Assembly: GCA_016870115.1 (NCBI GenBank)
Contig: VGCH01000002.1
Coordinates: 124,001 to 188,000, forward strand
DNA: 64,000 bases
Direction of reading: 5' to 3'
DNA from: Alphaproteobacteria bacterium
GTDB lineage: Bacteria > Pseudomonadota > Alphaproteobacteria > Reyranellales > Reyranellaceae
Part shown: piece by piece, positions 44,669 to 48,330 of the stretch
Position numbering within the stretch: position 1 is the stretch's first letter
How the letters are laid out: each line of letters opens with the position of its first letter
The notes under the pieces: generated by a model
Databases searched by the model: none
Told to the model about the DNA's origin: nothing
What the model saw: the letters and a program-made list of their open reading frames with translations, nothing else
Program-made: the position numbers and the translations under genes

Positions 44669-45862
44669 TCACACCCGGAACGGCGCGGGGACCAGCAAGT
44701 TCTCTGCGATCGGGTGCAGGCTCTTGTCGGCGTTGGCGAGACAGGCGCGCCGGCAGGCGTTGACCAGCGCCCCGGCGGCGGTGCCGCGCCAATACCACTC
44801 ATCGACCTGACGACTCGACGGGCGCGCGCCGGCACCGAGTGCGGCCTCGCCGTAGAAGGCGCGCAGATCGTCGGCGAAGAACTTGAGCGCCAGCACGGGC
44901 GGCATCGGCGGCGCCGGACTCGCGGGCACGTCGCCGGCCTCGAAGGCGGCGAGAAAGCGCGGCCAGGTCGCGGGCCCGCCGGGCAGGAGCCCGATCGTGG
45001 TGCGACCGCTCCGCAGCCTGTGCGCCTGCCAGGCGGGGCCGAGCTCCGCGACTTCGCGCGCGAAGGCGCCGGCGAACGGGCCCGCCGCCGGGTCGGCCGC
45101 GTGGGGCGGTGGCGACCAGCTCGGATCGTCGAGCCGGCCCGGCGCTTCCTCGGCGTGGTCGGCCAGGATCACCGGACCGTCGGTCCGCTCCAGGAGACCC
45201 AGCGCGGCGGTGAGCACGCGAGTCTGGAAGGCCGCATCGTCGGGCTCACCCAGCGGCCGGCCGAGCTGGAACGCAACGGCCAGAGCGCGCGGCGGGCAGA
45301 TCTTCTCGGCGTGAAGCCGGATCAGCGCAACGACCACCGTCGGCAGACCGCGACTCTCGAGCATGTGGGCCAGGGCGCTCACGGCGCGCGTGCAGAAGGG
45401 TCAAACCGGGACAAGCAAGGCGGCGTCGACGGCCTCCTGCCGACACTGGCCCGCGATCCGGTCGGCGGTCTCCTCCATTGCCTTGGGGTCGGTCGAACCC
45501 ATCACAGAATAGTGCGTCTCGGCGAGCCCGCCGATCGTGCCGGCCGATGCCATGTCGGCCAGCCGCCGCAGCGGGTAGACCGTGTCGAGGTCGCGCTGGA
45601 AGCCGCCGCGATCGTAGTTGATCGACACGTGGCTCATCACCAGATCGCCCGCGCCGAGCGTGGCGGGCAGCAGGCGAACCTCGGCCGAGCCGGGTCGGAA
45701 TGGGCTGTCTCCCCGGGGGTGCAGCGCCGCCGACGTCACCACCGCGACCTTGCGGCGCGCGAGCGGCGGGCCCGCGACGAACGGCGTCGCGGCGAAGGTC
45801 GGGCACTCGAGGTCGCGCAGGCGCTGCGCCGTCGCGGGTGGAAGGTCTTCGAGCCGGGCCAT
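44669..45862 (-). CDS. Probable selenoprotein: GrdB/PrdB-like reductase family with in-frame UGA (Sec154)
   Basis: A single reading frame runs from ATG 45862 to 44669, broken only by TGA at 45401-45403. Before it comes the family N-terminal half (RRKVAVVTSAALHPRGDSPF, VMSHVSINYDRGGFQRDLDT, AGTIGGLAETHYSVMGSTD, DAALLVPV). After it, still in frame, comes PFCTRAVSALAHMLESRGLP. The TGA thus occupies the first position of a U-P-F-C motif (residues 154-157), where glycine/sarcosine/betaine/D-proline reductase selenoprotein B relatives carry Sec or Cys. Read through, the protein is 397 residues, including a conserved C-terminal half (GRPLGEPDDAAFQTRV). A candidate stem-loop follows the UGA. It lies seven bases after DUF1289 and is probably in the phaR operon. 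The substrate is unknown. Confidence 0.82.
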
Positions 45863-45869
45863 GTGTCCC

Positions 45870-46052
45870 CTACAGTTTGCGTTGCGGCAGCAACTCCAGC
45901 ACGGCGCGGCGCTGGTCGTCATCCATGATCGACCAGCGGCCGATCTCGTCGATGGTGCGGCGGCAGCCCAGACACAGGTTGCTGCGCGGGTCGAGTTTGC
46001 AGACGCCGATGCAGGGCGAGATCACGCGCGCGCCCGGCTCGGGCTTGCTCAC
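45870..46052 (-). CDS. DUF1289 family cysteine-cluster protein
   Basis: This 60-residue protein has Cys14, Cys18, Cys27 and Cys30 in SPCIGVCKL and LCLGCRRTIDEIGRWS, the DUF1289 signature, which suggests a bound metal or iron-sulfur cluster. Function is unknown. It begins nine bases after phaR and ends seven bases before the selenoprotein candidate, so the three appear to be one operon. Confidence 0.88.
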   Translation of the reverse strand: MSKPEPGARVISPCIGVCKLDPRSNLCLGCRRTIDEIGRWSIMDDDQRRAVLELLPQRKL

Positions 46053-46061
46053 GCCAGCCTC

Positions 46062-46706
46062 TCAGCCCTTGGTGCGGACCAGGGACGCGAGCTGGCCCTG
46101 CAGCTCGTCGAGCTTGCGCTGCAGCTCATCGATCGCCTCGTCGTTTCGGGCGGCGGTCGGCGCGGTCGGCGGGGTCGGGGCCGCGGCGGGTGCTGTCGTG
46201 TTCGGCGGAGTCGTTCCCGGCGGTGGGGCGGCTCCCGGCCGGAACGGCGTGAACAGCCGCATGGCGTTCTCGAACATCGCCATGTTCTGCTTGCCCATCG
46301 ACTCGAACTGCTGGAACGGATTGAAGCCGAAGGCGTTCTGCAGGTAGCGGCGCATCTGGTCCTGGTTGCGCGAGAACTGCTGCATCGACATTTCGAGATA
46401 CTGCGGCACCACTCCCTGGAGGCTGTCGCCATAGAACGAGATCAGCTGGCGCAGGAATGAGATCGGCAGCAGGTGTTGGCCCTTGCCCTCTTCCTCGAAG
46501 ATGATCTGCGTCAGCACTGACCGCGTGATCTCTTCGCCGGTCTTGGCGTCGAACACGGCGAAGTCGGTCTTGTCCTTCACCATCTGCGCGAGATGGTCGA
46601 GCGTCACATAGGCGGAGGTCGCCGTGTTGTAGAGGCGCCGGTTGGCGTATTTCTTGATGACCACCGGTGGGACCCGGGTCGCGCCTTCGCTAGCCTGATC
46701 GGCCAT
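46062..46706 (-). CDS. phaR: Polyhydroxyalkanoate synthesis repressor PhaR
   Basis: This 214-residue protein has the PhaR DNA-binding domain KKYANRRLYNTATSAYVTLD, MVKDKTDFAVFDAKTGEEIT and LTQIIFEEE, then the PHB accumulation regulatory segments around LLPISFLRQLISFYGDSLQG. The Pro/Ala tail and a final short helix (LQRKLDELQGQLASL) are typical. PhaR binds PHA granules and represses phasin and PHA genes until granules form. It is divergent from the PHA-synthase-like pair. A plausible operator lies at the phaA start. Confidence 0.95.
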   Translation of the reverse strand: MADQASEGATRVPPVVIKKYANRRLYNTATSAYVTLDHLAQMVKDKTDFAVFDAKTGEEITRSVLTQIIFEEEGKGQHLLPISFLRQLISFYGDSLQGVVPQYLEMSMQQFSRNQDQMRRYLQNAFGFNPFQQFESMGKQNMAMFENAMRLFTPFRPGAAPPPGTTPPNTTAPAAAPTPPTAPTAARNDEAIDELQRKLDELQGQLASLVRTKG

Positions 46707-46862
46707 CCCGCCTCGCTGTTGCCGCCCCGCGCGCGGGTAAACGGCCGTTCATGGACTGACGGCAACCTTACCGCTGATACCGCAGTGCGGCAAGAAGCCC
46801 CTCGCGGCTGCGAAAGAGCGTGTTGAGCGCGCGCCGCACGCGCGCCGCGCTATAGTGCGGCC

Positions 46863-47201
46863 ATGACCGCCGATCGCGACGACCAAAACGCCGAGTTCGA
46901 CCGTCTGGCTCGGCGCTATCTCGATCTCTGGAGCGGACAGCTCGGGGGTCTGGCCGGCGACCGTGCGCTCACCGACCAGATCGCCCGGCTTCTCGCGGTC
47001 GCGAACGCCCAGGTCGCGAGCCTGATGCCGAGTGCCCCGCCCCCCGCCGCCGGAGCGTCCCATGATCCCGCCGCCGCGTCTCGGACCTCGCCCACTTCCC
47101 CTGCATCTGGGGACGGCGCTGTCGGGCTGGACGAGCTGCGAAGCCGCCTGGCCGCTCTTGAGGCGCGAGTCCGCGCACTCGAAGGCGGGCGAGGGGGCTG
47201 A
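46863..47201 (+). CDS. Small protein preceding the PHA-synthase-like gene, C-terminal coiled coil
   Basis: This 112-residue protein starts EFDRLARRYLDLWSGQLGGL, which resembles N-terminal parts of small proteins encoded beside PHA synthases, passes through an Ala/Pro linker, and ends with the heptad-like LDELRSRLAALEARVRALEG. Its last 140 bases overlap the next gene in another frame. Its position and coiled coil suggest an accessory or granule-associated partner, perhaps PhaE-like, but this is inference. Confidence 0.6.
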   Translation: MTADRDDQNAEFDRLARRYLDLWSGQLGGLAGDRALTDQIARLLAVANAQVASLMPSAPPPAAGASHDPAAASRTSPTSPASGDGAVGLDELRSRLAALEARVRALEGGRGG

Positions 47202-48330
47202 TCCTTTCGCCGCTCTGCTCGCGGAGATCGATGCGGTCGCGCGGGGCGCGCCCACCGGTACCTTCGAGAGGGCGCTGAAGCGCGAGATCGCACGGCGCAT
47301 GGACCGGCTGGCTGCCGGCGTTCTCGCCTATCGCCAGCACAAGGTGCGGCGCACGCTCGCGGAGCCACCGGTCGTCTGGAGCGAGGGCGGCACGCGGCTG
47401 CTGGACTACGGCGCCACCGATCGATCGGCGCGTCGGCGCGGCGCGCGCGCCGTGCTCGTTGTGCCCTCGCTCATCAATCGCTGGCAGGTGCTCGATCTCG
47501 CGCCCGGGAAGAGCCTGCTGCGTGCCATGGCTGCGTCGGGGCTGCGGCCCTACCTCGTCGACTGGGGCGATCCCGGAGCGATCGAACGCGGCTACGACGC
47601 GGCCGGCTATGTCGGTCGCTTGGAGCGCGCCCTCAGTTTCGTTGCCCGTCGCGCGCGGCGGGCGCCCGCCGTCATGGGCTACTGCATGGGTGGCACGCTG
47701 GCCGTCGGGCTGGCGGCCCGCCGACCGCGCGGCGTCGCGGCCCTCGCTCTCCTCGCTGCACCTTGGGACTTCCACGCGGATCGCACCGGACAGGCGTTTC
47801 TCGTTTCTTCGGGGCCGCTGCTTGCGCGTCTCGCGCAACAGCTGGGCGAATTGCCGCTCGATGTGCTGAACACGCTCTTCTGGTCGCTCGATCCCTGGCT
47901 TGCGGAGAAGAAGTTCGCGCGCTTCGCCGGCATGGATCCGGAAAGCGACGCGGCACGCGATTTCGTGCTGCTCGAGGACTGGCTGAACGAAGGTCCCGCG
48001 CTCGCTGGTCCGACCGCGCGCGACTGCCTGATCGATTGGTACGGCGCCAACCTGCCCGGCGCGGGCGATTGGACCGTCGCGAAGACCCGCGTGACACCGG
48101 CGAAACTCAAGATGCCGGCACTGGTGCTGATCCCCTCGGGCGATCGCATCGTGCCGCCAGGATCCGCGGCCGCGCTGACCGAGCCCGGTCGCGGCCTCGC
48201 CAACGCCACCCGGCGTGACTTGCCGCTCGGCCATATCGGCATGGTCGTGAGCGGCCGCGCCCGCGATCTCTGCTGGGAGCCGCTGATCGCGTGGCTGCAG
48301 GAGAATCCGGTGCGACGGGCGCGCGCATGA
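47062..48330 (+). CDS. PHA synthase (PhaC)-like alpha/beta hydrolase
   Basis: This 422-residue protein has the lipase-like box GYCMGGTLAVG with the nucleophilic Cys typical of PHA synthases in place of Ser, VVPSLINRWQVLDLAPGKSL, YLVDWGDPGAIERGY, and the Asp/His region LIPSGDRIVPPGSA and LPLGHIGMVVSG. It would polymerise hydroxyacyl-CoA into PHA; class III-like or a divergent PhaC relative are both possible. The N-terminus RLGPRPLPLHLGTALSGW is conserved in relatives as I recall, supporting the ATG at 47062 despite the overlap. The following LytTR gene overlaps its stop by ATGA. Confidence 0.8.
   Translation: MIPPPRLGPRPLPLHLGTALSGWTSCEAAWPLLRRESAHSKAGEGADPFAALLAEIDAVARGAPTGTFERALKREIARRMDRLAAGVLAYRQHKVRRTLAEPPVVWSEGGTRLLDYGATDRSARRRGARAVLVVPSLINRWQVLDLAPGKSLLRAMAASGLRPYLVDWGDPGAIERGYDAAGYVGRLERALSFVARRARRAPAVMGYCMGGTLAVGLAARRPRGVAALALLAAPWDFHADRTGQAFLVSSGPLLARLAQQLGELPLDVLNTLFWSLDPWLAEKKFARFAGMDPESDAARDFVLLEDWLNEGPALAGPTARDCLIDWYGANLPGAGDWTVAKTRVTPAKLKMPALVLIPSGDRIVPPGSAAALTEPGRGLANATRRDLPLGHIGMVVSGRARDLCWEPLIAWLQENPVRRARA

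What the first reader, a model, noticed from the sequence alone, without database searches (positions are those of the whole stretch)
45383..45412. In-frame UGA in a UPFC motif: a hidden selenoprotein of the GrdB/PrdB family
Two stretches on the minus strand (45404-45862 and 44669-45400) are in the same frame and separated only by TGA at 45401-45403. Read through, they give LLVPV-U-PFCTRAV in one 397-residue protein. UxxC is a selenium redox motif, and I recall selenoprotein B relatives of glycine/betaine/D-proline reductases carrying Sec or Cys at this spot, with Cys forms in non-selenium species. Both halves look like conserved protein, not random sequence. Downstream of the UGA, GCGC (12-15 bases on) can pair with GCGC (23-26) over a GCCGUGA loop, or GUG-A-GC can pair with GC-C-CAC; either sits roughly where bacterial SECIS elements occur. 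Automatic annotation would give two truncated hypothetical genes. A GrdB-type selenoprotein in the phaR-DUF1289 operon of an aerobic alphaproteobacterium, without other Grd/Prd subunits nearby, is a poorly described system.
Basis: partly seen in the sequence, partly recalled or inferred. Interest (0 to 1): 0.95.

Follow-up and report, generated by a model that had tools for sequence, protein, structure and literature searches.

The report
Stand-alone PrdB-like selenoprotein in aerobic bacteria
The "stop" codon in this gene is almost certainly read as the rare amino acid selenocysteine, giving one whole enzyme that resembles a subunit of D-proline and glycine reductases but lacks their partner protein and carries an extra domain of its own; it belongs to a widespread, uncharacterised branch of a known selenoprotein family.

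Summary
Window 44672-45862 (-) is one 397-residue frame broken only by TGA at 45401-45403. It encodes a selenoprotein. The genome has selA, selB, selD and a UCA tRNA-Sec. In the same bacterial family 52 of 52 full-length places keep exactly this TGA, as do 80 of 80 named relatives from several phyla. The sequence after the TGA is under purifying selection. A hairpin 12-28 nt after the UGA, loop CGUGA/G, is kept by double-sided base changes and decays in five homologues with Cys codons. In 387 alphaproteobacterial genomes the TGA form tracks selB (34 of 38 against 31 of 349).

The core is homologous to PrdB, the Sec subunit of D-proline reductase (hhalign E 2e-33). It is not a PrdB: score 91 against a cut-off of 300, no pyruvoyl partner (PF09338) in any of 75 genomes, a separate clade, and an extra C-terminal helical domain without a structural match. 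"PrdB" UxxC selenoproteins were already counted in sea water in 2005 and 2008, so the kind is known; this fused, partnerless branch is a variant that I found described nowhere. The phaR-DUF1289 context is not conserved. Likely role: a selenol/thiol (U154-C157) reductase; substrate unknown.

The parts
44669..45862 (-). Gene of the PrdB/GrdB-like selenoprotein, 397 residues plus stop, start ATG at 45862
   Evidence: Open but for one TGA; homologues in 74 of 75 genomes of the family and 80 named relatives
45401..45403 (-). In-frame TGA, predicted selenocysteine codon (residue 154)
   Evidence: TGA kept in 80/80 relatives, 52/52 family places, 36/38 class places, the other two without a stop and both TGT/Cys
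45392..45394 (-). Codon of Cys157, second redox residue of the UxxC motif
   Evidence: Invariant in alignments A1 and A2, aligned with the UxxC/CxxC cysteine of PrdB
45373..45389 (-). SECIS-like hairpin (stem 45384-45389 with 45373-45378, loop CGUGA at 45379-45383)
   Evidence: 4 of 6 pairs change on both sides and stay paired in 30 sequences, covariation 0.70 against 0.25 shuffled; 66 of 88 distinct loci keep 6/6 pairs, 22 keep 5/6; five Cys homologues keep 2-4
45143..45769 (-). Core alpha/beta domain (residues about 32-240) homologous to PrdB
   Evidence: hhalign 99.9%, E 2.1e-33 against PrdB; PF07355 22.3 bits, cut-off 22; AlphaFold mean pLDDT 83.8
44699..45076 (-). C-terminal helical domain (residues about 263-388) absent from PrdB and from the short paralogues
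   Evidence: Alignments A1/A2; own model pLDDT 86.1, pTM 0.84; no PDB match
45867..45871 (-). AGGGG, probable ribosome-binding site, overlapping the DUF1289 stop codon
   Evidence: Sequence
45870..46052 (-). DUF1289 gene directly upstream (neighbour, not part of the system)
   Evidence: PF06945, 79 bits; not next to the gene in relatives
46062..46706 (-). phaR, PHA accumulation regulator (neighbour, not part of the system)
   Evidence: PF07879 and PF05233; not next to the gene in relatives

Best explanation
The gene encodes a selenoprotein. SelB with Sec-tRNA-Sec reads the UGA at 45401-45403 as selenocysteine, directed by the hairpin 12-28 nt downstream, so that one 397-residue protein is made (inferred from strong comparative evidence; not shown chemically). 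The protein is a stand-alone relative of PrdB with a fused helical C-terminal domain. Most likely mechanism (inferred): the U154 selenolate attacks an electrophilic atom of a small substrate held in the alpha/beta core, C157 resolves the Se adduct to a Se-S bond, and a thioredoxin- or glutathione-type thiol reduces it again. Without a pyruvoyl partner it cannot use the Schiff-base route of glycine or D-proline reductase, so the substrate is probably not an amino acid deaminated that way. The C-terminal domain may close the active site in place of the missing partner (conjecture). Likelihood: selenoprotein about 0.97; thiol/selenol reductase of this type about 0.5; substrate unknown.
For: Sec machinery: tRNA-Sec with anticodon TCA (72 bits), selB 444 bits, selA 561 bits, selD 287 bits. 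UGA conservation. Purifying selection after UGA. SECIS covariation with controls; decay in Cys homologues L091, L094, L095, L177, L178. selB co-occurrence: 34 of 38 TGA genomes against 31 of 349 others, Fisher p 2e-26; 0 of 6 genomes with only stop-free forms have selB; a further TGA genome, G357, has selB cut by a contig end. Homology to PrdB with the Sec site aligned. No PF09338 partner in 75 genomes, positive control found. Distinct clade.
Against: No 75Se, proteomic or reporter data. The window's own hairpin has a C-C mismatch and is not the predicted minimum for the 45-nt RNA. Three TGA-bearing genomes (G293, G328, G336) show no selB, G293 with high completeness; assembly gaps or decay are possible but unshown. 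The Fisher test ignores shared ancestry. No conserved neighbour points to a substrate or reductant.
Confidence: 0.9

Rival explanations
1. Two separate proteins or a decayed gene: the UGA is a real stop, and the downstream GTG at 45382 starts a second protein.
For: An ORF finder lists 173-aa and 237-aa ORFs either side of the stop.
Against: The same single TGA at the same residue across several phyla; both sides under purifying selection; Cys homologues are single proteins; UxxC spans the stop.
Confidence: 0.02
2. Programmed read-through with another amino acid, or a regulated mix of short and long products, rather than Sec.
For: UGA is leaky in many bacteria (general knowledge); the window's hairpin is weak in isolation.
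Against: tRNA-Sec, SelA, SelB and SelD present; TGA is used as a stop, including this gene's own terminal stop; the alternative residue in homologues is Cys; hairpin and selB track the UGA.
Confidence: 0.03
3. A true D-proline or glycine reductase subunit whose partner is encoded elsewhere.
For: Homology of the whole core to PrdB, 34% identity.
Against: No PF09338 protein in 75 genomes of the family with a working positive control; true prdB genes sit beside prdA; score 91 against a cut-off of 300 bits; separate clade; extra C-terminal domain.
Confidence: 0.04
4. A peroxide- or disulfide-reducing thiol oxidoreductase in oxidative-stress defence.
For: Eight Reyranella-type loci place a UxxC peroxiredoxin-like selenoprotein gene (AhpC-TSA, PF00578) about 900 nt upstream (Sec codon to Sec codon) on the same strand.
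Against: The core shows no thioredoxin-family match; the association is limited to one group of close relatives and absent from the window and other taxa.
Confidence: 0.2

Closest known systems
PrdB, 26-kDa selenoprotein subunit of D-proline reductase (TIGR04483)
   Same: Core sequence (34% identity, hhalign E 2e-33), UxxC at the same columns, UGA-coded Sec in several members
   Different: No PrdA partner, extra C-terminal helical domain of about 130 residues, mostly in Proteobacteria, far below the equivalog cut-off, separate clade
GrdB/GrdF/GrdH of glycine, sarcosine and betaine reductases (PF07355)
   Same: Matches the C-terminal part of PF07355; Sec in the aligned region
   Different: Lacks the N-terminal part of GrdB; no GrdE-type partner; scores 35-42 bits against cut-offs of 602-800
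'Proline reductase PrdB' UxxC selenoproteins of marine metagenomes (Sargasso Sea 42 sequences, GOS 235)
   Same: PF07355-type UxxC selenoproteins of plankton, with Cys homologues; probably the same broad group
   Different: The papers do not, in the parts read, separate a C-terminally fused, partnerless branch; sequence-level identity with this clade was not tested
Short 'glycine/sarcosine/betaine reductase selenoprotein B family protein' of Alphaproteobacteria (group B here; Roseomonas WP_207415257, Haematobacter WP_035710215)
   Same: Same core, Sec or Cys in UPVC/CPVC/CPIC, same hairpin loop CGUGA in Sec forms
   Different: About 300 residues, no helical C-terminal domain; separate clade (99/95)

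Membership tests
Bacterial selenoprotein | In-frame UGA conserved, replaced only by Cys in homologues | tested here: met
   80/80 UGA; 36/38 UGA, the other two TGT/Cys; Cys in L091, L094, L095
Bacterial selenoprotein | selA, selB, selC (UCA anticodon), selD in the genome | tested here: met
Bacterial selenoprotein | SECIS hairpin just downstream of UGA, kept by compensatory change | tested here: met
   the loop starts 17 nt after UGA with G in its first two bases, as the bSECISearch model asks (rule from memory). The window's own copy has one mismatch
Bacterial selenoprotein | Selenium shown in the protein | not testable with these tools
   Needs 75Se labelling or mass spectrometry
PrdB/GrdB superfamily (PF07355) | Pfam gathering score | tested here: met
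   22.3 bits against 22 for the window; all 21 members of A1 match at E <= 0.01, best 4e-11
PrdB/GrdB superfamily (PF07355) | UxxC aligned with the Sec site of PrdB | tested here: met
D-proline reductase PrdB (TIGR04483 equivalog) | Curated cut-off of 300 bits | tested here: not met
   91.1 bits; a true PrdB, L189, scores 406.7
D-proline reductase PrdB (TIGR04483 equivalog) | PrdA pyruvoyl partner in the genome | tested here: not met
   PF09338 absent from 75 genomes including this one; control positive
Glycine reductase GrdB (TIGR01917) | Curated cut-off of 602 bits and GrdE partner | tested here: not met
   35.5 bits; no PF09338
Glycine reductase GrdB (TIGR01917) | GrdA and GrdC/D in the genome | not tested
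UGSC family selenoprotein (NF041046) | Homology to the UGSC profile | tested here: inconclusive
   hhalign probability 20-22%; a true PrdB scores 22 bits against a cut-off of 125

The most novel reading that the evidence does not exclude
A partnerless, oxygen-tolerant PrdB-type selenoenzyme with a fused helical domain that reductively cleaves a bond in a substrate outside the known glycine, sarcosine, betaine and D-proline set, used by soil, freshwater and marine Proteobacteria and by other phyla.
Probability: 0.4. Interest if true: 0.75.

Novelty: new variant of a known kind. Interest (0 to 1): 0.55.

Why it matters
Reductases of the PrdB/GrdB kind are textbook Stickland-fermentation enzymes of strict anaerobes, built from a Sec subunit and a pyruvoyl subunit. 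Here the Sec subunit alone, fused to a new domain, is kept with UGA in most genomes of a bacterial family whose cultured members are aerobes (general knowledge of Reyranella), and in relatives from several phyla. Its chemistry is unknown although it is among the commoner selenoproteins seen in the alphaproteobacterial genomes searched. It offers a clean natural comparison of Sec and Cys forms, and a small SECIS with visible decay once Sec is lost. Gene callers that take UGA as a stop would split it.

Tried and rejected
Neighbourhood as a guide to function: gene clusters around 88 distinct loci showed no neighbour conserved across lineages; phaR-DUF1289 occurs only in the window. PDB by sequence (profile of A2): no credible match. 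PDB by fold: for the whole model, no Foldseek match at E <= 0.001 and best VIA Z 7.6 (LacI, generic Rossmann-like); for the C-terminal domain alone, best Z 3.7, so no function was read from fold. UGSC-family link: suggestive motif likeness but weak statistics. First genome-contig scan with the single sequence found nothing; the scan with the alignment did. Promoter and terminator scan uninformative. Rejected: sequencing error or pseudogene (conservation), reassigned UGA (the gene itself ends at TGA, tRNA-Sec present).

Full report
Observation. Searches show that the two minus-strand stretches are in one frame, separated only by TGA at 45401-45403. Read through from ATG at 45862 they give 397 residues with LLVPV-U-PFCTRAV. 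A ribosome-binding sequence AGGGG precedes the start.

Is it translated through? The genome (3.56 Mb, 59 contigs, window at C2:124001-188000) has tRNA-Sec with anticodon TCA, selB, selA and selD; selA, selB and selC lie together on contig C19. On the same contig a molybdopterin oxidoreductase gene also carries one in-frame TGA, most likely a formate dehydrogenase (inference). A second, shorter homologue with a TGA at the same site lies on the window's contig (L002). In 75 genomes of the family 74 have matches; all 52 full-length (one of them partial at a contig edge or gap) A-type places carry exactly one TGA. A scan of GTDB contigs with the alignment found 261 relatives; in the 80 kept, all 80 have TGA at the residue, from Alphaproteobacteria, Gammaproteobacteria, Desulfobacterota, Nitrospinota, Gemmatimonadota and Chloroflexota as far as the record titles tell. 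This list is ranked by likeness to Sec-type queries, so it can understate Cys forms. In an even draw of 387 alphaproteobacterial genomes, 36 of 38 long matches have TGA; the other two have TGT for Cys. In close pairs pN/pS is 0.15-0.29 before, 0.06-0.34 just after and 0.20-0.37 in the C-terminal part after the TGA, so the downstream part is made as protein in frame.

SECIS. In 30 sequences from the window's subfamily (A) and the short paralogues (B), six pairs (columns 15-20 with 26-31, counted from the T of TGA) close a loop CGUGA or close variants. Four of the six pairs change on both sides and stay paired; 99.4% of cells are paired against 74.5% in shuffles, covariation 0.70 against 0.25, and sliding the partner destroys it. 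A and B share position and loop but have different stems (GCGCGC against CCAGAC). Much of the double-sided change is this one A-to-B difference, so cells count sequences, not events; independent further changes occur within A (C-G for G-C in L065 and L067, A-U in L160) and within B (U-A in L076, L089, L092). Among 88 distinct A loci 66 keep all six pairs and 22 keep five; 18 of 18 B loci keep six. Five Cys homologues keep two to four pairs and have altered loops. The window's own copy has a C-C mismatch at one pair and its 45-nt RNA does not fold this way as minimum; this is the weakest point of the SECIS case for this single gene.

Co-occurrence. TGA-bearing genomes have full selB in 34 of 38 cases, other genomes in 31 of 349 (Fisher p 2e-26, without correction for kinship). 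Of the four exceptions one has selB cut at a contig end (G357), one match is itself interrupted by a further stop (G328), one belongs to a genus where another member has selB (G336), and one (G293) is unexplained. None of the six genomes with only stop-free forms has selB.

What it is. The core matches PF07355 at the cut-off and the D-proline reductase PrdB model with 91 bits, cut-off 300. Profile comparison with four PrdB proteins gives 99.9%, E 2.1e-33 over 198 columns, with U154 on the Sec of PrdB. A tree of the shared core separates A, B and PrdB with strong support; the two A Cys forms lie within A, and L091 (Cys) lies among Sec forms of B, so Cys there probably arose by loss of Sec. AlphaFold gives a confident model (pLDDT 83.8): an alpha/beta core and a C-terminal helical domain. 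The latter is absent from PrdB and B, and neither part has a convincing PDB match. PF09338, the pyruvoyl partner family, is absent from all 75 genomes, while the same search finds it in a known carrier; true prdB genes sit beside prdA.

How it works (inferred). UxxC argues for a selenol nucleophile resolved by C157 and recycled by a dithiol. Without a pyruvoyl group the substrate need not be an amine; a published GrdB-like system proposed for fluoroacetate needs no Schiff base either (PMC10838667). The neighbourhood gives no substrate: phaR-DUF1289 is peculiar to the window. Recurrent but limited associations are a UxxC AhpC-TSA selenoprotein gene upstream in eight Reyranella-type loci, tandem duplicates in four loci and UGSC selenoproteins near three loci.

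Known or new. The Sargasso Sea (PMC1088965) and GOS (PMC2398784) papers list UxxC 'Proline reductase PrdB' selenoproteins with 42 and 235 sequences, and recent reviews list PrdB and GrdB as selenoprotein families (PMC13188914, PMC9312934). The family is therefore known. I found no description of a C-terminally fused, partnerless branch in the papers searched, but only an open-access library was searched. Verdict: a real selenoprotein, new variant of a known kind, function open.

Noticed in passing
L002 1378-2301 (same contig, C2 about 104631-105554, outside the window): Second PrdB-like selenoprotein of the same genome (307 aa, UPVC) directly upstream of a gene that looks like a CaiB-type CoA transferase (judged by eye), with its own CGUGA hairpin.
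   Followed up: yes
G000 C19:11647-13107: Molybdopterin oxidoreductase with one in-frame TGA near selA/selB/selC, most likely a Sec formate dehydrogenase: the genome probably has at least three selenoproteins.
   Followed up: partly
L062 5415-6065 (-), also L063, L064, L066, L069, L070, L071, L154: AhpC-TSA/redoxin gene with in-frame TGA (GSWUPYC or GAWUPYC) just upstream of the PrdB-like gene: two selenoprotein genes in a row in Reyranella-type genomes.
   Followed up: partly
L140, L146, L155, L161: Tandem duplicates of the PrdB-like selenoprotein gene, both copies with TGA, about 30 nt apart.
   Followed up: partly
L124 7768-8289, L125 2139-2681, L133 4468-4983: UGSC-family selenoprotein genes within about 3 kb of the PrdB-like gene; UGSC and PrdB share a UxxC-helix-LE..GIP pattern, and a true PrdB weakly hits NF041046 (22 bits), perhaps a distant common origin.
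   Followed up: partly
L091 1814-2737 (-): Cys (TGT) form nested among Sec forms in the tree, with its hairpin half decayed: a natural Sec-to-Cys replacement.
   Followed up: yes
window 46062-48330: phaR, a divergent alpha/beta hydrolase with weak PhaC_N similarity and a DUF1289 gene lie near each other: polyhydroxyalkanoate metabolism, apparently unrelated to the finding.
   Followed up: no
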